A stretch of DNA of 64,000 nucleotides from Planctomycetaceae bacterium (lineage in GTDB: Bacteria > Planctomycetota > Planctomycetia > Planctomycetales > Planctomycetaceae). The first letter of the stretch is position 1. Each line of letters starts with the position of its first letter. A program made the position numbers and the translations under genes. The stretch spans positions 1-64,000 of the forward strand of contig JANSXP010000038.1 in the NCBI GenBank assembly GCA_024742875.1, given 5' to 3'. Below the pieces are notes generated by a model. The model ran no database searches, was not told the origin of the DNA, and worked only from the letters and a program-made list of their open reading frames with translations. This document shows positions 47,852 to 63,300 of the stretch, in pieces.

Positions 47852-47925
47852 GCACCTGTAGCTCAACTGGATAGAGCACCGGTCTACGAAACCGGAGGTT
47901 GGAGGTTCGAACCCTCCCAGGTGTA
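47852..47925 (+). tRNA. tRNA-Arg (anticodon ACG)
   Basis: A complete 74-base cloverleaf. The acceptor arm GCACCTG pairs with CAGGTGT; the anticodon stem CCGGT/ACCGG holds the loop CTACGAA with anticodon ACG at 47886-47888; the T arm GGAGG-TTCGAAC-CCTCC is standard. CCA is not encoded. The A at position 34 would be converted to inosine by TadA. A rho-independent terminator follows 9 bases later. Confidence 0.97.
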
Positions 47926-47933
47926 CTGCTTTT

Positions 47934-48005: not shown

Positions 48006-49175
48006 TCACTGCTCCAATTCGCCGCCAAAAAGATCTGAGAGCTTGTCAGAGGCGGCAGCCTGAGCACCTTGCATGAGGTGGACATACATGTTGGCAGTGG
48101 TGCTAAAGTCTGCGTGACCAAGGCGGGCTTGGATGACCTTCATGTCGACCCCCTGAGCCAGCAGAAGACTTGCTTGTGTGTGACGCAGGTCATGGAATCG
48201 GACCGAATCCCGTATTCCAAGCTCGTCCCTGATAGGGTTCCAGCACATTCGATTGAAATTTGAGCCACGCAGTCGCCCACCAATCGTGTCTGGATAGACA
48301 AGGGGGCAGTTCTCAGGGCTCATGCCTTCAGAAACGGCCGCCTCTCGTCGCTTCACAAGCGTCTTCAGAGTGAGATCATCCAGAGTAACAACCCGGTAGC
48401 TCTGCCGGGTCTTTGGAGCTTTCTCATTGTTGCTTGATTTCGTCCCCGTGGCTTTCATCGTCTTTTTGGTAAGCTCTTCAAGCGACTTTCGCACGATCAG
48501 TTCTCTCCTTCCGAAATCGACGGCAGACCATTCAAGCGCGAAAATCTCACGTAAACGCAGTCCGGTAGTTATGCCAAGAATGATCACTCCACCAAGCCTG
48601 TTCTCACTGCAAAGTCGCATCAGGCTTCGGCACTCGTCAAGTTCGAGTGGACGGACCTCCCGTCGTTGAACTCTTGGCTTATCAATGGCGGCAGTTGGAT
48701 TGTGCGATATCAGATTGAGTTTTATGGCCTTGTTGAGAGCGTTCCGGAGAATGCGAATCGACTTTGCTCTTTGATTGTCGCTGTATCCCTTTCGTTTCTG
48801 GTCGGCCTGCCATCGCTGAAGATGCTCCCCGTTTAACTGCGACATTTTCAAGTGACCAATGAATGGAACGACGTGTAATCGAGTGACCGATTCGTATTCT
48901 TCATAAGTTTTCGCCGCCTTGTTGACTGCAACGTCATCAGCGAGCCAGCGGCTCAGATACGACTCCAGTGAATCGTTCGAAGCTACCGCATCTTGCCCCT
49001 TTCGAGCTTGCTGACGGAGCACTTCCAGCTTTGCAGCCACATCGGCCTGACGCTGACCGTAAACAGTTCGTTGACGCCGCTTCCCTTCAGAGTCGTTTCC
49101 AAGACTGATTCTTCCCACCCAAACGCCATCCTTTCGCTGAAAGATCGTTCCCTCTCCATTCGCTCTCTTGCTCAT
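48006..49175 (-). CDS. int: Tyrosine-type site-specific recombinase (integrase)
   Basis: Catalyses integration and excision through a Tyr-linked DNA intermediate. The 389-residue protein has an N-terminal AP2-like/arm-binding domain (GTIFQRKDGVWVGRISLG), a SAM-like core-binding domain (about 70-170) and the catalytic domain with Arg in GITTGLRLREI, HxxR in FHDLRHTQASL, His in LGHADFSTT and the nucleophile Tyr in ANMYVHL. All key residues are present, so it should be active. The ATG overlaps the stop of the upstream sigma-like gene in ATGA fashion. Its 3' end faces tRNA-Arg, the likely att site. Confidence 0.95.
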   Translation of the reverse strand: MSKRANGEGTIFQRKDGVWVGRISLGNDSEGKRRQRTVYGQRQADVAAKLEVLRQQARKGQDAVASNDSLESYLSRWLADDVAVNKAAKTYEEYESVTRLHVVPFIGHLKMSQLNGEHLQRWQADQKRKGYSDNQRAKSIRILRNALNKAIKLNLISHNPTAAIDKPRVQRREVRPLELDECRSLMRLCSENRLGGVIILGITTGLRLREIFALEWSAVDFGRRELIVRKSLEELTKKTMKATGTKSSNNEKAPKTRQSYRVVTLDDLTLKTLVKRREAAVSEGMSPENCPLVYPDTIGGRLRGSNFNRMCWNPIRDELGIRDSVRFHDLRHTQASLLLAQGVDMKVIQARLGHADFSTTANMYVHLMQGAQAAASDKLSDLFGGELEQ

Positions 49176-49891
49176 ACTGCCATCTCCTGAGAAGACTTGC
49201 TCGATCTTGTTAACGCTTGATGCTGCATCACAAAACGCCGTGTTTCCGTATGCGACTGAAGCATGTGCACGACAGAATCAGCCCCCCATTTTTCGATCAG
49301 CACTCTCCCGGCAGACCTCATGATTTGCAGCAGCGTCTTCTTGAAGTCTCTCTTGATCCCCAGTGCATCCGCTATCCGTCGTCGATCCTTCGCATCACCT
49401 AAGTGCAGGTCGTTCTGATAGACCAGCTTGGCAACTTCGATTGCTCGGCTGTCCACGAGATGCCCTCGACAGATCCTCTCGAGTTCACGGAGTATCACTT
49501 CAGCGTCACCATCTCCCGGGCACTCATCCATTGAGATCAGTTGGTCATCGGAGATCTCAGGCGTGAATCGGATTTTCAGGGAGTCGATCGCTGGGCTTCG
49601 CCAACGCATGCCGTCGTTGATTGCGTTTTCAATGGACTTCCAGAGCTGCTGTTCGAAGAAGGGCGACGTCGCTTCCAGTGTTGCCCGATTGGAATCAGGG
49701 TCACCCAAGACTGACTGTACAAGCCCCCAAAATGCATCACTTTCGACTTCTTCGAACAGCTGTGATTCGGTGTCGATTCGGTTTTGGATGCAGTAGTGCC
49801 GGGCAACGTTTCTTGCAAATGGCACGTACTTCGTAACAACCTCATTCGGTGTCAGGTCTGCGTTCGGATCGTCTTCACTCTCTTCACTCAT
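49172..49891 (-). CDS. Sigma-70-like protein coupled to the integrase
   Basis: A 239-residue protein with a divergent sigma-70 region 2 pattern (residues 20-110: YVPFARNVARHYC, then SDAFWGLVQSVLG and FEQQLWKSIENAIND) and a C-terminal helix-turn-helix resembling region 4 (about 155-205: RRIADALGIKRDFKKTLLQIM). The region 2 promoter-melting aromatic positions are weakly conserved, so it may be an anti-/co-regulator rather than a true sigma factor. It starts with ATG 49891 behind a strong GGGGGAAG site, and its stop overlaps the integrase start, so both proteins are made together. Confidence 0.65.
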   Translation of the reverse strand: MSEESEDDPNADLTPNEVVTKYVPFARNVARHYCIQNRIDTESQLFEEVESDAFWGLVQSVLGDPDSNRATLEATSPFFEQQLWKSIENAINDGMRWRSPAIDSLKIRFTPEISDDQLISMDECPGDGDAEVILRELERICRGHLVDSRAIEVAKLVYQNDLHLGDAKDRRRIADALGIKRDFKKTLLQIMRSAGRVLIEKWGADSVVHMLQSHTETRRFVMQHQALTRSSKSSQEMAV

Positions 49892-50655: not shown

Positions 50656-51339
50656 CTAAGCCACACGAAGCCGATAGCAGACGAGGTTCACGTGATGCTC
50701 AGGTATTCCGAGTTCCTCAGCAATCTGCTCATCCGTGTAGAAATGCTCCCAAAGCTCACGAATCATGTGATTTCGAACCGTGACCAAGGCCTTCCTTTTT
50801 CTGACCCCAACGTTGGTTGAGGATCGCGAAGTCAGCACTGCAATCTCATCCTCAGTCTTTCCCTGACAATACGCTTCAAGAATCTGGCGGTTAAGCCCAT
50901 CGAGCTCTTTCAATGCCTTCCTGAATCGAAGGACACTGTCAGGCTCCTCAATGTCATCTGGAATCGGTCTCTCACCGGAAGCAATATCCTCTTCAGCCAA
51001 TGTCCCATTGGCCCTCGCCTCTTCTCGAATTGCAAACTGAACCGGCTGAGTCTGCTTCCGCTGCCGCTTAATCTCCGAAAGCATCCTCCAGACGATCAGT
51101 TTCCAGCAGTAACTCTCAAGCTTGACCCCGCGTGACGTGTCGAAGTTCTTGGTGGCGTCCCATAGAGCGAGGTCACCGACCTGAACAAGGTCGTCAAAGA
51201 TTGACGGCCATCCATGGCAACGAGCAAGGTGCTTGACGACTCCTCTGTGCTCTGTGAACACCTTGAGGCGAACCTCGATGCTGTTGGTGGGGCGTTCGCT
51301 TGTTGGGGTGTCCTGGTGGGTTATTTCGTTGGCTTTCAT
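50656..51339 (-). CDS. Compact sigma-70-family factor with extra C-terminal HTH
   Basis: A 227-residue sigma factor. Region 2 is clear (about 45-105: FDDLVQVGDLALWDATKNFD with the following SYCWKLIVWRMLSEIKRQ), region 3 is absent or short, and region 4 lies at about 150-190 (LNRQILEAYCQGKTEDEIAV). A further short HTH-like segment (YTDEQIAEELGIPEHHVNLV) forms the C terminus, which standard ECF factors lack. No anti-sigma gene is adjacent. ATG 51339 is used; upstream in-frame starts at 51366 and 51507 would add atypical residues. A structured leader and a promoter with an operator-like repeat lie upstream. Confidence 0.8.
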   Translation of the reverse strand: MKANEITHQDTPTSERPTNSIEVRLKVFTEHRGVVKHLARCHGWPSIFDDLVQVGDLALWDATKNFDTSRGVKLESYCWKLIVWRMLSEIKRQRKQTQPVQFAIREEARANGTLAEEDIASGERPIPDDIEEPDSVLRFRKALKELDGLNRQILEAYCQGKTEDEIAVLTSRSSTNVGVRKRKALVTVRNHMIRELWEHFYTDEQIAEELGIPEHHVNLVCYRLRVA

Positions 51340-51375
51340 TATTGTCGACGTTCCGTGTCGCACCATGAAATGAAA

Positions 51376-51409
51376 CCGGCCAGGGGGCAACGTCGCCCCC
51401 TGCAGCCGG
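51376..51409 (-). promoter_or_regulatory. Hairpin in the leader of the compact sigma-factor gene
   Basis: AGGGGGC (51382-51388) pairs with GCCCCCT (51395-51401) around a 6-base loop, extended by CCGGC/GCCGG outer arms. It sits about 40 bases before the start codon and could slow translation or terminate transcription; it has no T-run. Confidence 0.4.
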
Positions 51410-51635
51410 CAACCAACACCCTCGGAAGGATGAACCCGTGTTGTATTGGTGCGCAGACCTCTCCCACGAGTGGGGTCTTTGCGGGGAACACTCGCTAGCC
51501 GAAGCAATTGGCCGAGCGTGGAATTGCGAGCAATAGAATGCGTGCGTAGACTGCATCGCAGCCACCGTCCTTCTCTCTGAGGTTGGGCGTTGGTTAGGCG
51601 AGGCCGGGAGGTGCGATCTCTCGGTCTCGCTGATT

Positions 51636-54566: not shown

Positions 54567-54833
54567 CTACCAGCGTTTAGGGCGTTCGCTTTTCGGGCGT
54601 GCTTCGTTCACTTTTATGTTGCGGCCGCCCAGCGGGCGCTCATTTAGAGCTTCAATCGCTGATTGAGCTTCAGTCGAATCCGACATTTCCACGAAGCCGA
54701 AGCCCTTCGACTGGCCGGAGTCTCTGTCGGTTATCACGTTCGCTTTTGCCACCTGGCCAAACTGGCTGAATGCCTCTTGGAGGTCGTCTGATGTGGTCTG
54801 ATACGAAAGATTTCCTACGTAAATACTTGTCAC
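54567..54833 (-). CDS. RRM-type RNA-binding protein
   Basis: An 88-residue single RNA-recognition-motif protein. RNP2 is IYVGNL (residues 4-9) and RNP1 is KGFGFVEM (near 43-50), with the aromatic residues that stack on RNA. Bacterial single-RRM proteins of this type are often cold-induced or abundant RNA-binding factors. A GTG start at 54833 has GAGGAAG 7 bases upstream. The basic C-terminal tail (RPKSERPKRW) can aid RNA contact. Confidence 0.93.
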   Translation of the reverse strand: MTSIYVGNLSYQTTSDDLQEAFSQFGQVAKANVITDRDSGQSKGFGFVEMSDSTEAQSAIEALNERPLGGRNIKVNEARPKSERPKRW

Positions 54834-55471
54834 TTTGTTTCTTCCTCTCAGGTTAGTGATGTGTCAGCTGCAGCAGGTCTGGTCGCTACGGAAGCTTTGT
54901 CGAATCAATCGACGAAGTGCACGAGCAAGAGACGCGTCAGGATCGACGCACCGCGCGTTCAAACCAAGCGAAGCACTACAAACCCAGTTTGGAGGCGACA
55001 CAGCGAGAATCGCGGAAGATCCTCGGGGCGGAAGAAGGACACGTTGCAAGAATTCTGAAGGCAACGGATGAAAGCTATCAGGCAGATCGACGTTTGCTCA
55101 GACCAAATCCGGGAATATGAACGATAATGGCTCCGATTGTCGAAGTTGCCGCAAACTGCTCGGCCCTCTGAGGCATTGGGCACTTTAGCAGGTGTGGGGC
55201 GGTGACTGGCGCGCAGAAGACCAAAGGGAAGCTCTATCCAACCTCGGAAGATTCCGACCTCAATCCGAACGCTGTCGGTGCATGGTCAAAGGGTTTCAAT
55301 GAGCGGAGAGGTGAACTGCTGCCGTTTGTTATGGAATCCATCAGGCCGGCAGTGCGTACCGGTTTCCCATTGAAGGAAAACCGACTTTAGCAAGGCAATC
55401 GAGCTCGGAGACTAGACCTGCCCGCGGGGCGCGAGTCGAAAAGTGTCCGCGATCGGGCGCTACGAGAGCTT
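54834..55471. other. Long region upstream of the RRM gene, no gene seen
   Basis: About 640 bases. A 62-codon plus-strand frame at 55202-55390 has neither a ribosome-binding site nor a recognisable family. A long leader for the RRM gene, as in cold-shock genes, is possible but no structure was established. Confidence 0.4.
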
Positions 55472-55660
55472 CTAACTGAGTTCTTTCTGTGACTTCCGAA
55501 TGCGTGTGGCAGTCCGTTTTCGTTCGCTCCTGCGAATGTCACTCGGCTTCTCGTAAGTGTTGATCTGCCGACACTGCGACTTTATACCGGACGTCAATTT
55601 TCGAAAACGTCGCAAGGCGTCGCTGAGTTTTTCGTTTGGTCTTAACTTCACTTTGAACAT
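55472..55660 (-). CDS. rpsU: Ribosomal protein bS21 (accessory paralogue)
   Basis: A 62-residue basic protein matching bS21: FKVKLRPNEKLSDALRRFRK at the start, YEKPSDIRRSERKRTATRIR in the middle. bS21 sits near the mRNA exit channel and anti-Shine-Dalgarno helix of the 30S subunit and helps initiation. GGAGG lies 6 bases before the ATG, a near-ideal site. It follows a small basic-protein gene by 74 bases on the same strand. Being on an island, it is probably an additional copy; extra bS21 genes are known on mobile elements and phages and may bias translation. Confidence 0.92.
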   Translation of the reverse strand: MFKVKLRPNEKLSDALRRFRKLTSGIKSQCRQINTYEKPSDIRRSERKRTATRIRKSQKELS

Positions 55661-55734
55661 GTATAGCCTCCTGCTTTGGGCAATTACGACACTGCCGACT
55701 CGTTGATTTCGGAAACAACCTGAACAGCGTGATG

Positions 55735-55893
55735 CTATGACTGCACCGAACTGACGTTTTCGCTACTCGCAGCGATTGTTTTTCCTTTTCGAGCCGCGCG
55801 CTCTCGACGTTTCTTCGCAGCTTTGGCCTTCTTGTCCATTTCTCGTTTTCGCTTTTCATAGGTGTTCTGATTCGATGCGATAGGGAACTCCAT
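55735..55893 (-). CDS. Small very basic protein of the NTYEKRxRE type
   Basis: A 52-residue protein not long enough for usual ORF cut-offs. About a third of its residues are Lys or Arg, concentrated in NTYEKRKREMDKKAKAAKK (residues 10-28) and the following KRRERAARKGK. Similar short proteins with an NTYEKRxREMxKKxK core occur in several bacterial groups and are often seen near bS21 or cold-shock genes; this is from memory of the pattern. Helical and likely RNA- or ribosome-binding. ATG 55893 has a weak ribosome-binding site. It is followed by bS21 in the same direction. Confidence 0.65.
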   Translation of the reverse strand: MEFPIASNQNTYEKRKREMDKKAKAAKKRRERAARKGKTIAASSENVSSVQS

Positions 55894-56570
55894 TCAAGTG
55901 AGAATTTGATTGAGGTGACACTAAATCGAGAACTCCGGTCGCTCATACAAGGACCGTCAATGTTGCCGAACCGCACATAAAATAGAGGCACATGGTTCGT
56001 GTTGATCCCGCAGTAAGCATCATGCCGCAATTGGCCCCGACAAGGACCAGAACAGCAGTGCATAAGCCTTCACTGTTCGCCTGCAGGTGTGAAGTTAGCG
56101 GTGACCAGAACACGAACGCCGCCCACATTCCTGGTGGAAAACAGCACAGGTACCACCGAACTGAAGCAGCGAAGTCACAGAAAGGACGCGTCCGGATCGA
56201 AGCAGCATGTGCGGCCAGAGTGATCGAAGACGAACTATTGGCCGTCAGATCAAGAATGGGACTCAAGAATCAGTCGCACCATTCTTGCAGCGGAAGCATT
56301 AGATCTGCGATACACAATGCTGAATTCAACACAGCTGGGCGAAGCCTACCAAAAATCGGCTGGAAGGCCACCCGAAAATCCCACCAAAGAGCCAGAGTGT
56401 GGTGCTTACCTCACGATTCCTGACTTGCTGGGAGCGCAATTCACCCACGGACGATGCAATCTGAAAACATTCGGCCATAAGTCATTCCTCACGCATCGCT
56501 TACGAGCAGTGACACTATTGTGACTCGAACTTTGGCAAGTTGGCAGTGTGGAACCCCCAACGAGAAGCTA
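55894..56570. other. Region upstream of the bS21 unit and helicase remnant, no gene seen
   Basis: About 680 bases. Plus-strand frames at 55992-56423 and 56317-56523 lack family resemblance and good start signals. It must contain the promoter of the small-protein/bS21 pair. No repeat recognised. Confidence 0.4.
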
Positions 56571-57108
56571 GACTATCACCTGTTGGAACAAGGATTCGAC
56601 CCGACTCTGCGTTTCATTCCTCCGTTGAGGGAGAAACGCGTTGTGCAGCGGTCGCCGGAGTAGGCTTCCTCGGGCACTCGCCGACTTTCGCGATGCGAAG
56701 ATCACGGTACTGGTCGCAACAGATGTCGCCTCCCGCGGTATTGACATTGAAGGCATCACTCACGTTGTGAATTATGACCTTCCCCGCGAGCCCGAATCCT
56801 ATGTACATCGGATCGGGCGGACTGGTCGAGCAGGGCGTAAGGGGACAGCAATTGCATTTTGCACTGCGTCCGAAAGCGGCGAGCTGAGAGCCATCGAGCG
56901 GTTGATTGGCCATAAGCTTCCCGTTGAAGTCAATGAGATCACTCATCAGACGCTAGACCAACCCGAATACAGCTCACAGCCCGCCACGGACAAGACACGC
57001 CGGCGCGAAACGAACGACGATCAGACAGCTGCAGTGAAGCCAGCTTCCAATCGTTCGCGGCAAAGACGGCATCGCACACGAGAAAACGTGAATGGCGGTT
57101 TGAAGTAG
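56571..57108 (+). pseudogene. Remnant of a DEAD-box RNA helicase (RhlE type)
   Basis: The last ~140 codons (from about 56660) encode the end of a helicase: [20 protein letters not shown] (motif V), [15 protein letters not shown] (motif VI) and a basic RNA-binding tail with TRRRETNDD and [10 protein letters not shown] short segment before it (56577-56640, another frame) reads [20 protein letters not shown], which resembles the post-DEAD region (GFxPxLRxI...LPxxR). The DEAD box, SAT motif and motifs I-III are missing. An internal deletion with a frameshift, plus loss of the 5' end, explains this. An ATG at 56641 could still produce the C-terminal fragment, but it would lack ATPase activity. Confidence 0.75.
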
Positions 57109-57197
57109 CGTGCTGAGATAGACGATTGGATTCGCGTGTTCACGAAGCTGAGCGTTTCAGCCGAACGAACACGCTCTTATTGAAGCGAAATTGAGAG

Positions 57198-57395
57198 ATG
57201 GCAGAAGGCACGATTAAGCGAATCACCGACAAAGGGTTCGGTTTCATAGACACAGGAAGTGACAAAGACTTGTTCTTCCATTCATCCCAGGTCAGCGGCG
57301 ACGGCTTCGATAATCTTCGGGAAGGGCAACGCGTTTCCTACGACATAGGTAGTGGCCCCAAGGGCCCGCAAGCAGAAAATGTCTGCAGTACCTAA
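57198..57395 (+). CDS. CspA-family cold-shock protein
   Basis: A 65-residue single cold-shock-domain protein. RNP1 is KGFGFID (near 12-18) and RNP2 is DLFFHSS (near 24-30), so the nucleic-acid-binding surface is intact. These proteins melt mRNA structure at low temperature or act as general RNA chaperones. It lies 89 bases after the helicase remnant on the same strand; csp-rhlE pairings are common. ATG 57198 has a GAGAG stretch directly before it, close for a ribosome-binding site. Confidence 0.92.
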
Positions 57396-58947: not shown

Positions 58948-59237
58948 CTCCCCCGGTACCACGCGATACTGGAGCAACGTGACCCGTGGCATTCAACGGC
59001 GTTTTCAGCCACGCGGTCGTTTAACGCTTCGATCGTAGCTATAAGCCAGTTGCCTTGTACTAGCCTGCAGTCAGTCCCAATCCTGTCACCAGTCGTCGCG
59101 ACAGGACTCTTCTTGTACATGGAACTGTTAAGAGAGAACGCTTCGCGAACTCAGCGTGTTTTCGTGCCTATCAATGAGCAAGGTGGACGTGTCCGTGATT
59201 ATTTGGAGAGACTGGTTAAACGTGCGTGGGTGAGGCC

Positions 59238-59288
59238 AACCGCTGTGACCTCGGTCGTGACCACCGACGCGCTGAGCACGGCGTCTCC
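59238..59288. repeat. 51-bp imperfect direct repeat, copy A
   Basis: The sequence around TGACCTCGGTCGTGACCA recurs at 61208-61258 with no gaps and about 44 of 51 identical bases. It contains GGTC-GT-GACC, an inverted repeat. Copy A lies 167 bases beyond the stop of the DUF4236-TerB gene. The rest of the 58948-59454 gap shows nothing gene-like. Confidence 0.85.
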
Positions 59289-59454
59289 ACGTGAGATTTG
59301 TCGCCCAAGACGATTCAACATGAACTCCTCTGAAAAACTGGTACACGGTCGCGCAACCATCATTTCCCATAGTCAAAGTCACGACGCGGAGTAGCCCTGT
59401 TTATCTTTCCGCAACACGAAAGACGAGGGGCCCGTGTGGGACTTCCATAGGAAG

Positions 59455-61089
59455 TTACTCGCGGTCTTTTAGGCTCTTCCGCAACCTCGCGAACATCGCT
59501 TTCTCTGCCCTGCAGACTTTGCCGTCCGCCATCGCCACCAATTTCAAGCATCTTAGGACCAGTTTCTTGTCGTGATCGTCTAGGTGTCGAAGCTTTGCCG
59601 ACGTATACCCAACCGCTGCATGGGGCCCCTCCTGTTCAACAGCGTTGACGAATGAGTTGAGGTCTCGCTTGACGCGTTTCGGCTTAAGTTCAAATCGTTC
59701 AGTGAGAATCTTGACGATTTGAAATTTCTCTTCCTGCGCGACCACTTTATCTGCGACCATCATGCAGCCAAGAGCATTGAGCGCCCCTCGATAGGCCTCC
59801 GACTCTGGATCCGAAAAAATCCCATACGAAAACATGCACTGAAAAACTACCCCTCCGACGAATATCGGAACTCCAATTGGTGGAATGAATGATGCGAGAA
59901 TGCCAGCGACATAGACGGATACCAACTGCCAGCGAGCAAATCGAATTCCACTTTCTTCAAAGTATACTTCCGACGCCTTGGGCTTCGGGGGTGAGGGGAC
60001 GCAATCCTCTGACAACCCGCCGACTGCCTGCATTGCCTTCAGGGCCGCTGCGACGGCTTCTATGCTTTGCGCTCGGACATTCAAGAGCGTTCTGTCGAGT
60101 CCGGCGGCACTTTGCACGCGTAAAGTGTGGTAAAGGATACTGAACCGTTGGGGATTGACTGCAAATCGCTTGTCTGGTCCGCCGTCCTTGTTCGTGTATT
60201 GCCAAGTTGTGCTGACAACTTTCGCCCCATCAGGCACTTGGTTTTCGATGATAACGCGGGAGTCAACGGCGGTCATGAGTTCCGAATAGGAGAGATTACT
60301 CATTTTGCCATTATCGACCCGAATCACTCTGTCCGGCATGATGACATAGCAGATTCGGCCGATACGAAGCGCAATCGGGGTCACGTTCACGCGAGTATTG
60401 GCGAATCGATACTCGTAAACAGCCACGTTTCGACTCGTGCTGACAATTCCACTGGCCCCAGCGTGGTACTTGGAATCATATACCTCCCCGGCACTTTCGA
60501 GGAGTTGAGAGCCTCTAAGGGACATTACGGCAGTCTGTAGCTGCTGAAACGATCCTTCCCATTCGTCTGCCAATTCGTAGGTTAACTCTACGGTAGCGTC
60601 TCTATACGCCCTATAAGAGGCGAGCCAGAAAAACAGGAGTGGCCAAGCAGCGATGTTCCACCAGCGCCAGCCCAGCTGAAAATGAATGATCCAACAAATG
60701 GTGGCGAGGCTCGCAAGCAACGGCCAAACAAGCTTCCACCATGCTTTACGGGACTCCGCCAACGCCCTCAAGAGTTCATCTGACGCATCTGACGCATCAC
60801 CACACGAGCCAATTGCAAATTGCGGGCCGGCGGTTACCCGACCAGTCGTCTTGGTCGTTGGCAAGAAGCCAACTTGCATTTTACTGCCGGAGTCTGGTCG
60901 CCGAGGCGGTTCGGCCGTCCCCAAGTATTGCTTGTAATAGAAGCCTCTGCGCCCTGCGTGAACATAGGAACGCCCTTTTGCATCTATCCCTATTCGGAAG
61001 CCGGTTATCCCACCCGATACTCCAACACCAGACTTGGAGAGGCTGAATCTCACTGGCCCGAGTTTTACTGATTTGCGAAAAGAGAACAT
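59455..61089 (-). CDS. DUF4236-membrane-TerB domain protein
   Basis: A ~544-residue protein. Residues 1-58 match DUF4236 (FSFRKSVKLGPVRFSLSKSG, then GFRIGIDAKGRSYVHAGRRG). Two hydrophobic segments lie near 120-165 (WKLVWPLLASLATICWI and WWNIAAWPLLFFWLASY) and two more near 390-430 (VYVAGILASFIPPIGVPIF, GGVVFQCMFSYGIF). The C-terminal ~110 residues look like a TerB-type helical domain (LGCMMVADKVVAQEEKF, VAMADGKVCRAEKAMF), a putative metal-binding fold found in tellurite-resistance and stress/phage-defence contexts. ATG 61089 has GAGGGG upstream. Flanking 51-bp direct repeats suggest a cassette. A defence role is a guess from the domains. Confidence 0.75.
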   Translation of the reverse strand: MFSFRKSVKLGPVRFSLSKSGVGVSGGITGFRIGIDAKGRSYVHAGRRGFYYKQYLGTAEPPRRPDSGSKMQVGFLPTTKTTGRVTAGPQFAIGSCGDASDASDELLRALAESRKAWWKLVWPLLASLATICWIIHFQLGWRWWNIAAWPLLFFWLASYRAYRDATVELTYELADEWEGSFQQLQTAVMSLRGSQLLESAGEVYDSKYHAGASGIVSTSRNVAVYEYRFANTRVNVTPIALRIGRICYVIMPDRVIRVDNGKMSNLSYSELMTAVDSRVIIENQVPDGAKVVSTTWQYTNKDGGPDKRFAVNPQRFSILYHTLRVQSAAGLDRTLLNVRAQSIEAVAAALKAMQAVGGLSEDCVPSPPKPKASEVYFEESGIRFARWQLVSVYVAGILASFIPPIGVPIFVGGVVFQCMFSYGIFSDPESEAYRGALNALGCMMVADKVVAQEEKFQIVKILTERFELKPKRVKRDLNSFVNAVEQEGPHAAVGYTSAKLRHLDDHDKKLVLRCLKLVAMADGKVCRAEKAMFARLRKSLKDRE

Positions 61090-61207
61090 CTGCCCCTCAA
61101 CCAATCGTGGATTCTGAATGACTTGAATCGAGCATTGCCATTAAGCCAATAGACGTGTCATACTGCAAGCGTACGGTTGTACATGTCTTAAGATTCCTTC
61201 AGCGAAC

Positions 61208-61258
61208 AACCGATGTGACCTCGGTCGTGACCAACGACGCGCTGAAAGCAGCCTCTCG
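61208..61258. repeat. 51-bp imperfect direct repeat, copy B
   Basis: Second copy of the element at 59238-59288, exactly 1970 bases downstream. It lies 119 bases upstream of the start of the DUF4236-TerB gene, in a 460-base region (61090-61551) that otherwise shows nothing gene-like. Confidence 0.85.
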
Positions 61259-61551
61259 TCGTCTGCAGGCAATTGTGCTCCGACATAAAGACCAGCGATA
61301 ACGCTGCAATCCAACCCAAGAATGTCACGCGATCCTCTGGCCGACGGAAATACCCTTACAGCATGCCGATTCAGGCGTAGTCTCATTCGCGATGCCGCTA
61401 TTCGAAGCGATTCCGCCAGCAATCACGCAGAACGTCAGGCAATGCACAGAACTCGTTGCCAGGAACGCAGATCAGTGCATTACTCTGGACATTTGAATAG
61501 ACAAATCACTTTCGAGTTCTCGCCGGCCATCTGACGAGCTATACTGCGGGG

Positions 61552-61953: not shown

Positions 61954-62148
61954 CCGTCTCGCAGCCGTTGTTCTCTTCGGCTGCTTGCCGACCTGTGACT
62001 CGACACGCCAGTTGGGCGTGCGGACTCTGCGATGGCTGTTCGCATGTGAGTTCCTTCCATGAAGCTCAGCGAACCTATGGCTGCGCGTTGTCCAACGATG
62101 TCGTTAATGATCTTCATGCATTTGTTGTATCAGACTCAGACGCAAATG

Positions 62149-63300
62149 ATGCTCCCCTGGGAATATGGTGTTCGGAATTTGGCCCGACGTCCGGTACGTA
62201 CGGCACTCACACTCGTTGCTCTGGCGACGGTCGTAATGCTTGTGTTCGTAGTTGTGGGTTTCATTCGTGGGTTGGAGCTTTCGCTCGCGATCAGTGGAGA
62301 TCGAGACGTCGCCCTGGTCTATTCGGTAAACTCCGAAGAAAACATCGAAAACTCGTCCATTGAGGCTAGGACTCCGGACTTGCTCACCGCCAGCATTGAA
62401 GGTGTTTGGAATCGCTTTGGCGTGCCGCATGTCTCTCCTGAGTTGTACATGGGGACGCGTGTCAGATTGCGTGACGGCTCCACTGGACTGGGATTGGTGC
62501 GAGGTGTCACTCGCAACGCCCCACTCGTAAGACGTAGCGTTCGACTAACGTCAGGCCATTGGCCGCAGGCGCACGAGGTCATGGTTGGGCGTTTGGCTGC
62601 TGCGAAGCTGGGAATCAACAATAACGAATTGGCGATTGGCCAAACAATTGAGTTTGAGGGGCAGTCCTGGACGATAAGCGGCGAATTCTCGGCGGGGGGG
62701 GCTGCGTACGAATCCGAGATATGGTGTCGCTTAACGGATTTCCAGACCGCCACCAAACGACAGGACCTCAGCCTGGTTGCGATTCTGCTCACGTCTGGAG
62801 CGACGCCAGCCGAAGTGTCGCTGTTCTGTAAGGAACGCACCGATCTGGAACTCCGGGCCATCCGCGAGACCGACTATTACGGACTACTGCAACAGCATTA
62901 TCGCCCCGTCCAGCTACTGGCCTGGCTGGTCGTCTTCCTGGTCGCCGGGGCCGGCGTCTTCGCTGGATTGAACATGATGTATGGGGCGGTCGCCGGGAGA
63001 GTCCGTGAGATCGCGACCTTGCAGGCGATCGGATACCGACGCCGTGCGATTCTGTTGAGTCTCGTCCAGGAAGGGGTTCTGCTGGCAGCGGCCGCTTCAC
63101 TCCTCGCTGGCCTTGTGTCGCTGACGGTCCTGAACGGGACGGCCGTGCGATTCACCATGGGCGCATTTGTTTTGCGCATCGATAGCGTGGCAATCCTCTG
63201 GGGTTGCGGCGTGGGAATCTTGTTAGGGGGCCTGGGTGCACTGCCACCGGCACTCAAGGCACTTCGCGAATCTGTGGCAATTTCACTCAAGGCAATGTAA
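62149..63300 (+). CDS. FtsX/MacB-type ABC transporter permease
   Basis: A ~383-residue permease of the lipoprotein/MacB export type: N-terminal membrane helix ([20 protein letters not shown]), a large extracytoplasmic domain (about 40-255), then three membrane helices with the FtsX core ([40 protein letters not shown]). Conserved segments match known MacB/LolC relatives. The start is the ATG at 62149 (an ATG lies one codon earlier), giving the usual [11 protein letters not shown] opening; a longer frame to 62059 is unlikely. The ATPase gene is not in view; the operon may continue beyond the window. Confidence 0.85.

What the first reader, a model, noticed from the sequence alone, without database searches (positions are those of the whole stretch)
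54567..57395. Compact set of RNA-binding/cold-response genes on an apparent island
Within 3 kb lie an RRM protein, a bS21 paralogue, a 52-residue basic protein, a DEAD-box helicase remnant and a CspA protein. These functions meet at mRNA unfolding and translation initiation. As a set on mobile-looking DNA they may be a transferable module that remodels host translation.
Basis: partly seen in the sequence, partly recalled or inferred. Interest (0 to 1): 0.62.

Follow-up and report, generated by a model that had tools for sequence, protein, structure and literature searches.

The report
Hidden AUC-start gene in cold-shock operon
One of the five RNA-handling genes in this stretch belongs to an unnamed family of very small proteins that tends to sit beside cold-shock and RNA-helicase genes and in most of the relatives read here appears to start at an AUC codon that gene finders ignore, which suggests that the cell sets its dose by how strictly ribosomes choose start codons.

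Summary
The five features are real. The genome (a Fuerstiella relative) has one csp and one basic-protein gene, both here, two S21 and four RRM matches. In relatives the basic gene lies next to a DEAD helicase and/or csp gene in 44 of 59 Ile-start loci, 25 with the full order helicase - basic - csp. Here that operon is broken: the helicase lost its N-terminal part and the basic gene lies inverted beside S21 and RRM. A 'transferable module' is only partly supported.

The main result is another. The basic protein has no match in the family libraries or PDB searched, and in 59 of 82 distinct loci its frame begins at an Ile codon (55 ATC, 4 ATT), with a Shine-Dalgarno in 56 of 59, against 69 of 1090 internal Ile codons. 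Deeper relatives have ATG there. infC (IF3) in a sample of these genomes mostly also has an ATC/ATT start (26 of 29 loci, lenient criterion). I propose an IF3-gated AUC start for a small RNA- or ribosome-binding helix. The start is well supported; gating and function are inferred.

The parts
   Evidence: Alignments A1/A2 begin at this codon; start analysis over 82 distinct loci
55888..55891 (-). GGAG Shine-Dalgarno of BASIC, 6 nt before the ATC; overlaps the last base of the upstream in-frame ATG
   Evidence: Upstream sequence printed; similar spacing in relatives
55472..55660 (-). bS21 paralogue, downstream of BASIC on the same strand, AGGAGG in front of its ATG
   Evidence: PF01165 and TIGR00030 over cut-off; second S21 of the genome; sequence
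54567..54833 (-). RRM RNA-binding protein, GTG start
   Evidence: PF00076, NF058537; one of four RRM matches in the genome
56671..57108 (+). C-terminal remnant of a DEAD-box RNA helicase of the kind that precedes BASIC in relatives
   Evidence: Helicase_C only; tblastn with three full-length relatives: homology begins near 56671 and no convincing N-terminal piece in 47-64 kb
57198..57395 (+). CspA-like cold-shock protein, only CSD match of the genome
   Evidence: PF00313; own-genome search
47852..47926 (+). tRNA-Arg(acg) at the point where GC drops
   Evidence: ARAGORN, composition
48006..49175 (-). tyrosine recombinase/integrase
   Evidence: PF00589, phrog_1

Best explanation
The set is a rearranged, partly decayed descendant of a planctomycete RNA-chaperone operon (DEAD-box helicase - BASIC - csp), here placed with a second bS21 and an RRM gene some 5 kb from an integrase. 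BASIC is a very basic, single-helix protein expected to bind RNA or the small ribosomal subunit. In most Planctomycetia relatives read here its gene starts at AUC (rarely AUU) behind a Shine-Dalgarno. IF3 rejects such codons in other bacteria, and infC mostly has the same kind of start in these genomes, so BASIC should be made at a low dose that follows IF3-controlled start fidelity, separately from its partners (DEAD mostly UUG, csp mostly AUG). In E. coli IF3 auto-repression of infC weakens in the cold, so the AUC may work as a cold-released start. Shown by sequence: gene order, start codon, Shine-Dalgarno, coding selection. Inferred: IF3 gating, cold release, RNA or 30S binding.
For: 82 distinct BASIC loci: ATC 55, ATT 4, ATG 19, GTG 3, TTG 1 (the script took the first start-like codon, Ile codons included, at a fixed distance before the conserved T[YF]xKR). 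Of the 59 Ile starts, 56 have GGAG/GAGG/AGGA at the right distance against 69 of 1090 internal Ile codons of 45 DEAD ORFs; GGAG ends 6-8 nt before the codon in 50 of the 52 that have it; 33 of 59 have no ATG/GTG/TTG between the in-frame stop and the Ile codon; 13 of 59 have none through codon 20 either. ATC share 55/59 against 56.7% of Ile codons (binomial 5e-10, relatedness ignored). In 57 loci the third base of codon 1 differs in 0.13 of pairs, against 0.41-0.73 at codons with an (almost) invariant residue; differences by codon position over codons 2-20 are 0.15/0.18/0.56, as in coding DNA. Mean Shine-Dalgarno energy is -7.6 for BASIC Ile starts, -4.1 for csp, -5.1 for DEAD. Deeper relatives and two Kiritimatiellia loci have ATG at the same residue. 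DEAD before and/or csp after in 44 of 59 Ile-start loci. infC: 14 of 29 loci have no ATG/GTG/TTG before the conserved core; 26 of 29 have an ATC/ATT with Shine-Dalgarno support (lenient), 3 of these also a supported canonical codon. AlphaFold2: one helix, residues 3-44.
Against: No ribosome profiling, proteomics or reporter data. The window copy has an in-frame ATG four codons upstream and could use it; 26 of 59 loci have some canonical codon upstream in frame, 6 of them within 10 codons. The loci are related, so counts are not independent. BASIC genes with canonical starts have nearly as strong a Shine-Dalgarno (-7.1, n = 23), so its strength is not special to the Ile starts. infC has ATC/ATT also in G110, G128, G140 and G163, whose BASIC genes start with ATG or GTG, so the two starts do not change together. 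One DEAD-BASIC-csp locus (L084) and one DEAD-BASIC locus (L128) have ATG. BASIC was not found in many relatives (found in 40 of 148; 33 of 392, where at most 16 candidates a genome were scored), including genus members G003 and G006. IF3 control of an AUC start in planctomycetes is inferred from other phyla. A lysine/arginine-rich helix need not act on ribosomes. Cold-related expression is untested; the cspA thermoregulator hit is far below cut-off.
Confidence: 0.55

Rival explanations
1. The ATC is only a conserved isoleucine; translation starts at an upstream codon, or by coupling or frameshift from the helicase gene.
For: 26 of 59 Ile-start loci have an ATG/GTG/TTG somewhere upstream in frame; the window has ATG four codons before.
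Against: 33 of 59 have none between stop and Ile codon; the residues before it vary while a Shine-Dalgarno at near-fixed spacing is kept; the residue is M in deeper relatives; codon choice is far more restricted than at other codons.
Confidence: 0.07
2. The AUC start is real, but only a fixed means of keeping a toxic or costly basic peptide at low level, with no IF3 or temperature signal.
For: In S. aureus non-canonical starts gave about 10% of the AUG output in poor medium, and cvfC1 AUU showed no medium effect (PMC13009471, passages). infC keeps its Ile start where BASIC has ATG or GTG, so no tight link between the two is visible.
Against: infC mostly has the same kind of start in genomes with Ile-start BASIC, and IF3 represses such codons in E. 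coli and sigR GTC in Streptomyces (PMC5472188, passages).
Confidence: 0.3
3. One reading: a mobile module that remodels host translation.
For: tRNA-Arg, integrase and GC step upstream; all five genes belong to, or keep company with, RNA- or ribosome-related families.
Against: Helicase truncated; five-gene arrangement in no other locus read; no relative of BASIC or S21 confirmed on viral contigs or plasmids; csp and BASIC are single copies.
Confidence: 0.12
4. BASIC is a shortened bS21 (its C-terminal half) acting beside the anti-Shine-Dalgarno.
For: Shared NTYEK string in the window's S21 and BASIC.
Against: Profile comparison gives probability 0.1-0.2%.
Confidence: 0.03

Closest known systems
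infC (IF3) with AUU/AUC/AUA start, auto-repressed by IF3
   Same: Ile-type start codon behind a Shine-Dalgarno; the same kind of start is found here for infC in a sample of the genomes
   Different: BASIC is not an initiation factor; its neighbours are helicase, csp or RRM genes; control by IF3 not tested
sigR (GTC start) of Streptomyces, IF3-repressed (PMC5472188, passages)
   Same: a gene other than infC with a non-canonical start, tied to IF3
   Different: different codon, protein and phylum; tested there, not here
cvfC1 (AUU, 61-residue protein) and ccpN (AUA) of S. aureus (PMC13009471, passages)
   Same: conserved non-canonical start with strong Shine-Dalgarno; cvfC1 is also a small protein
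   Different: not compared by sequence here; not described there, in the passages seen, as part of an RNA-chaperone operon
Bacterial cold-shock RNA-chaperone genes (DEAD-box helicases of the CshA/SrmB/RhlE kinds, CspA)
   Same: the operon partners match these families
   Different: a BASIC gene between them is not part of the E. coli genes as I recall them
Cyanobacterial rbp-rpsU pairs (recalled; one search listed only an abstract on cold-related Rbps, PMC9333190)
   Same: RRM protein and S21 genes as neighbours
   Different: BASIC and the AUC start are not part of it as far as I recall

Membership tests
Genes with IF3-controlled non-canonical start codons | start codon other than ATG/GTG/TTG | tested here: met
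   59 of 82 distinct loci ATC/ATT, by sequence only; 33 of the 59 without any canonical codon upstream
Genes with IF3-controlled non-canonical start codons | Shine-Dalgarno at proper spacing | tested here: met
   56 of 59; GGAG spacing 6-8 nt in 50 of 52; mean duplex energy -7.6, but -7.1 for BASIC genes with canonical starts
Genes with IF3-controlled non-canonical start codons | output rises when IF3 falls | not testable with these tools
   needs a reporter and IF3 titration
DEAD - BASIC - csp operon | full-length DEAD gene, BASIC and csp on one strand in this order | tested here: not met
   window: DEAD truncated, BASIC on the other strand; intact order in relatives
bS21 (BASIC as a derivative) | profile similarity to bS21 | tested here: not met
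   hhalign probability 0.1-0.2%
bS21 (gene at 55472-55660) | match over the family cut-off | tested here: met
   PF01165 35 bits, cut-off 27; TIGR00030 35.7, cut-off 28.95
Integrated mobile element | integrase next to a tRNA gene | tested here: met
Integrated mobile element | repeated tRNA end at the far side | tested here: inconclusive
   no 13-base match on the contig, which ends at 68,431
Integrated mobile element | empty site in relatives | tested here: inconclusive
   the flanking hydrolase has no close orthologue in the genus (best 38%)

The most novel reading that the evidence does not exclude
A conserved AUC start codon is a built-in cold and fidelity switch: within one operon the helicase (UUG), BASIC (AUC) and csp (AUG) are dosed by start codon, and IF3 ties BASIC, and through it RNA chaperoning or 30S activity, to initiation fidelity, so that infC and BASIC form an IF3 regulon in planctomycetes.
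Probability: 0.35. Interest if true: 0.82.

Novelty: new variant of a known kind. Interest (0 to 1): 0.62.

Why it matters
infC is described as a rare example of a well-characterised gene with a non-canonical start (PMC5472188, passage). A whole small-protein family with such a start, kept across planctomycetes that include record titles of Planctomycetaceae and Pirellulaceae and lying among cold-shock and RNA-helicase genes, makes it directly testable whether start-codon identity is used as a regulatory input. It also points to real genes that gene finders may misplace or skip, because they accept only ATG, GTG and TTG; how BASIC is annotated in public records was not checked. The family has no match in the libraries searched (window protein; profile against PDB).

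Tried and rejected
BASIC as a bS21 fragment: rejected. N-terminal part of the helicase elsewhere in 47-64 kb: none convincing. Intact cassette elsewhere in the genome: the best full-length helicase (C1:192280) has no BASIC or csp within its 4.2 kb locus. Mobile relatives: none confirmed on viral contigs for BASIC or S21, none on plasmids, one weak S21 match in phages; PADLOC matched only csp, to a CSD_V model. Attachment-site repeat: none (one search lists no long repeat at the tRNA). Empty-site test: flank not conserved. RNA thermosensor: Rfam cspA at 16.9 bits, cut-off 78. Known family for BASIC: window protein without hits in Pfam, NCBIfam and PHROGs, profile without hits in PDB; Pfam hits of the 25 members are scattered and weak (best E 0.007).

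In the neighbour table the window's own copy, represented by a short locus, is among the 14 'none', and 'none' also includes cut contigs. Confidence in the best explanation was lowered from 0.6 to 0.55, and that of the fixed-low-dose rival raised from 0.28 to 0.3, on re-reading: infC keeps an Ile start where BASIC has ATG/GTG, and canonical BASIC starts have almost as strong a Shine-Dalgarno.

Mistakes: one search used the accession of S20 instead of S21; one search was a wrong-frame translation and was not used; searches had faulty motif patterns and were replaced; one search contains one false entry (L029, a csp ORF). Not done: a search for RRM in relatives, a phylogenetic test of start-codon changes, a search for BASIC in phages, a check of public annotation.

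Papers: PMC13009471, PMC5472188, PMC9845219 and PMC6511841 were seen as passages only; others only as search listings. PMC1924895 is not held. Searches showed no description of this operon or of an AUC-start gene in planctomycetes, but only 20 of 123, 10 of 157, 0 of 0 and 10 of 67 papers were listed, and most subscription journals are not in that library.
Full report
What is in the window. All five features are present at the stated places: an RRM protein (54567-54833, minus), a bS21 (55472-55660, minus), a small basic protein (55735-55893, minus), the C-terminal part of a DEAD-box helicase (56641-57108, plus) and a CspA-like protein (57198-57395, plus). The genome holds one CSD match, this one, four RRM matches on three contigs, two S21 matches of which the window's is the weaker (33.7 against 50.4 bits), and one copy of the basic protein by single-sequence search and by profile. 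So csp is not a spare copy, while S21 and RRM have paralogues.

The surroundings. A tRNA-Arg at 47852-47926 is followed by a tyrosine integrase at 48006-49175, and GC falls from 0.599 to 0.538. Three contigs fetched by name as Fuerstiella MAGs (L088, L089, L091) have the contig lengths of contigs of G002, G007 and G001, which genome search lists as the same genus, so the window's genome is a Fuerstiella relative. Stretches read from seven genus genomes have GC 0.517-0.568, and of five other stretches of the own genome four are 0.596-0.599 and one (L010) is 0.557, so the low-GC part is unusual for this genome but not for the genus. The contig ends at 68,431 without a second copy of the tRNA end. 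An integrated element is likely; its far end, and whether the five genes lie inside it, cannot be told.

The operon in relatives. Homologues of the basic protein (called BASIC here) were found in 40 of 148 relatives, in 45 loci of a named collection, out of 84 stretches that matched the search pattern, and in 33 of 392 genomes drawn from the phylum (at most 16 candidates a genome scored). Many sit in the order DEAD helicase - BASIC - csp on one strand. Over 82 distinct loci, Ile-start BASIC genes have DEAD before and csp after in 25, csp after only in 11, DEAD before only in 8, csp before in 1 and none of these in 14 of 59; some loci are short, so 'none' includes cut contigs and the window's own copy. 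Genes with ATG/GTG/TTG starts have RRM before in 8, csp before in 2, DEAD before in 2 (one of them with csp after) and none in 11 of 23. In the genus, G001, G002, G005 and G007 have the intact order, G004 has BASIC - csp, G003 has DEAD - csp without BASIC, and in G006 neither csp nor BASIC was found. In the window the helicase has lost everything before position 56671, with no convincing N-terminal piece in 47-64 kb; csp follows the remnant after 89 bases, and BASIC lies on the other strand, followed by S21 and RRM. A full-length helicase on contig C1 (62% identical to the genus query) has no BASIC or csp in its 4.2 kb locus.

The start codon. When the BASIC sequences are lined up, conservation begins with I-A-K-N-Q-N-T (A1 and A2 were cut at that residue, and the open frames before it, printed, look unrelated). 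In many loci a stop codon lies a few codons upstream with no ATG, GTG or TTG in between. Over 82 distinct loci the first codon is ATC in 55, ATT in 4, ATG in 19, GTG in 3 and TTG in 1. The rule of that script was to take the first start-like codon, Ile codons included, at 6, 8, 7, 5 or 9 residues before the conserved T[YF]xKR; 57 of the 59 Ile starts are at 6. Among the 45 named loci, which overlap with the others, it is ATC in 35, ATT in 3 and ATG in 7. ATC is seen in records titled Fuerstiella (L088, L089, L091; Planctomycetaceae) and Pirellulaceae (L069, L071, L082) and in Rhodopirellula maiorica (L081), ATT in Stieleria sedimenti (L086; Pirellulaceae); the two Kiritimatiellia loci (L103, L104) have ATG.

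Controls. (1) Of the 59 Ile starts, 56 have a Shine-Dalgarno word at the right distance, against 69 of 1090 internal Ile codons in 45 helicase ORFs of the same collection of loci. (2) GGAG is present in 52 and ends 6-8 nt before the codon in 50. (3) 33 of 59 have no canonical start between stop and Ile codon, and 13 have none through codon 20 either. (4) ATC makes up 56.7% of Ile codons in the helicase genes but 55 of 59 here (binomial 5e-10, which ignores relatedness). (5) In 57 loci the third base of codon 1 differs in 13% of pairs, against 41-73% at codons with an (almost) invariant residue, while codons 2-20 show the pattern of coding DNA (0.15, 0.18, 0.56 by codon position). (6) Neighbouring genes do not share the start: csp ATG in 46 of 46 and DEAD TTG in 20 of 21 placed starts (the csp pattern there requires Met and the DEAD pattern Leu; a count of csp without that demand gave ATG in 45 of 48, and its DEAD list shows TTG in most of 22). 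(7) Mean Shine-Dalgarno energy, against a generic anti-Shine-Dalgarno string, is -7.6 for BASIC Ile starts, -4.1 for csp and -5.1 for DEAD, but -7.1 for the 23 BASIC genes with canonical starts, so strength is a mark of the gene rather than of the codon. In the window the sequence reads TGA ATG GAG TTC CCT ATC: the ATG overlaps the GGAG site, so the ATC at 55881-55879 is the likelier start, giving 48 residues with 15 K/R and 5 D/E.

Link to IF3. infC was sought in 30 genomes and found in 27 (29 loci). In 14 of 29 there is no ATG, GTG or TTG between the in-frame stop and the conserved core; in 26 of 29 an ATC or ATT has Shine-Dalgarno support by a lenient criterion, in 3 of them together with a supported canonical codon; 3 of 29 have only a canonical one. 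In the window's genome the supported infC starts are ATC or the ATT before it (L165). infC has such a start also in G110, G128, G140 and G163, whose BASIC genes begin with ATG or GTG, so the two do not change together. [quoted passage not shown] coli and ATC in Streptomyces, and that sigR (GTC) is repressed by IF3 (PMC5472188); that conserved AUU/AUA starts with strong Shine-Dalgarno sites lower output to about 10% of AUG in poor medium in S. aureus (PMC13009471); and that in E. coli IF3 rises relative to ribosomes in the cold while its auto-repression is reduced (PMC6511841). The last two facts pull in opposite directions for BASIC (more IF3, less repression), so the direction of a cold response is open; I favour release.

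What BASIC is. The window protein has no match in Pfam, NCBIfam or PHROGs and the profile none in PDB. AlphaFold2 on the window protein with 25 named relatives gives one helix (3-44), confident in residues 11-30. It is not a piece of bS21 by profile comparison. RNA or ribosome binding is inferred from charge and from its frequent company of helicase, csp and RRM genes.

Judgement. As a transferable module it is weak: broken helicase, sole copies, no confirmed relatives of BASIC or of this S21 on viral contigs or plasmids. The overlooked point is the start codon of the least conspicuous gene. I rate the AUC start of the family at about 0.9, IF3 gating at about 0.6 given the start, and a cold switch at about 0.35.

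Noticed in passing
L142-L170 (infC loci of 27 genomes); L165 for the window's genome: infC of these planctomycetes mostly begins at ATC or ATT; 14 of 29 loci have no canonical start before the conserved core.
   Followed up: partly
helicase genes in L018-L127: The DEAD helicase gene of the operon has a conserved TTG start (20 of 21 placed starts), so the three genes have three kinds of start codon.
   Followed up: partly
window 59237-59292 and 61207-61262: Two 56-base direct repeats, 84% identical, on either side of a gene with DUF4236 and TerB domains (59455-61104, minus).
   Followed up: no
window 50656-51507 and 49172-49891: A sigma-70-like gene (PF04542, PF08281) and an unassigned ORF beyond the integrase; could belong to the element.
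   Followed up: no
window 62059-63300 and L009:41-3235: A MacB/FtsX permease gene followed by an HlyD-like gene (Pfam) and, judged by eye from the ORFs, an ABC ATPase and a second permease: an exporter near the contig end.
   Followed up: no
G100 (class relative): Eight S21 matches in one genome, where most relatives have one.
   Followed up: no
L061:8494-9284: In class relative G140 an S21 gene lies about 0.2 kb behind a csp gene on the same strand.
   Followed up: no
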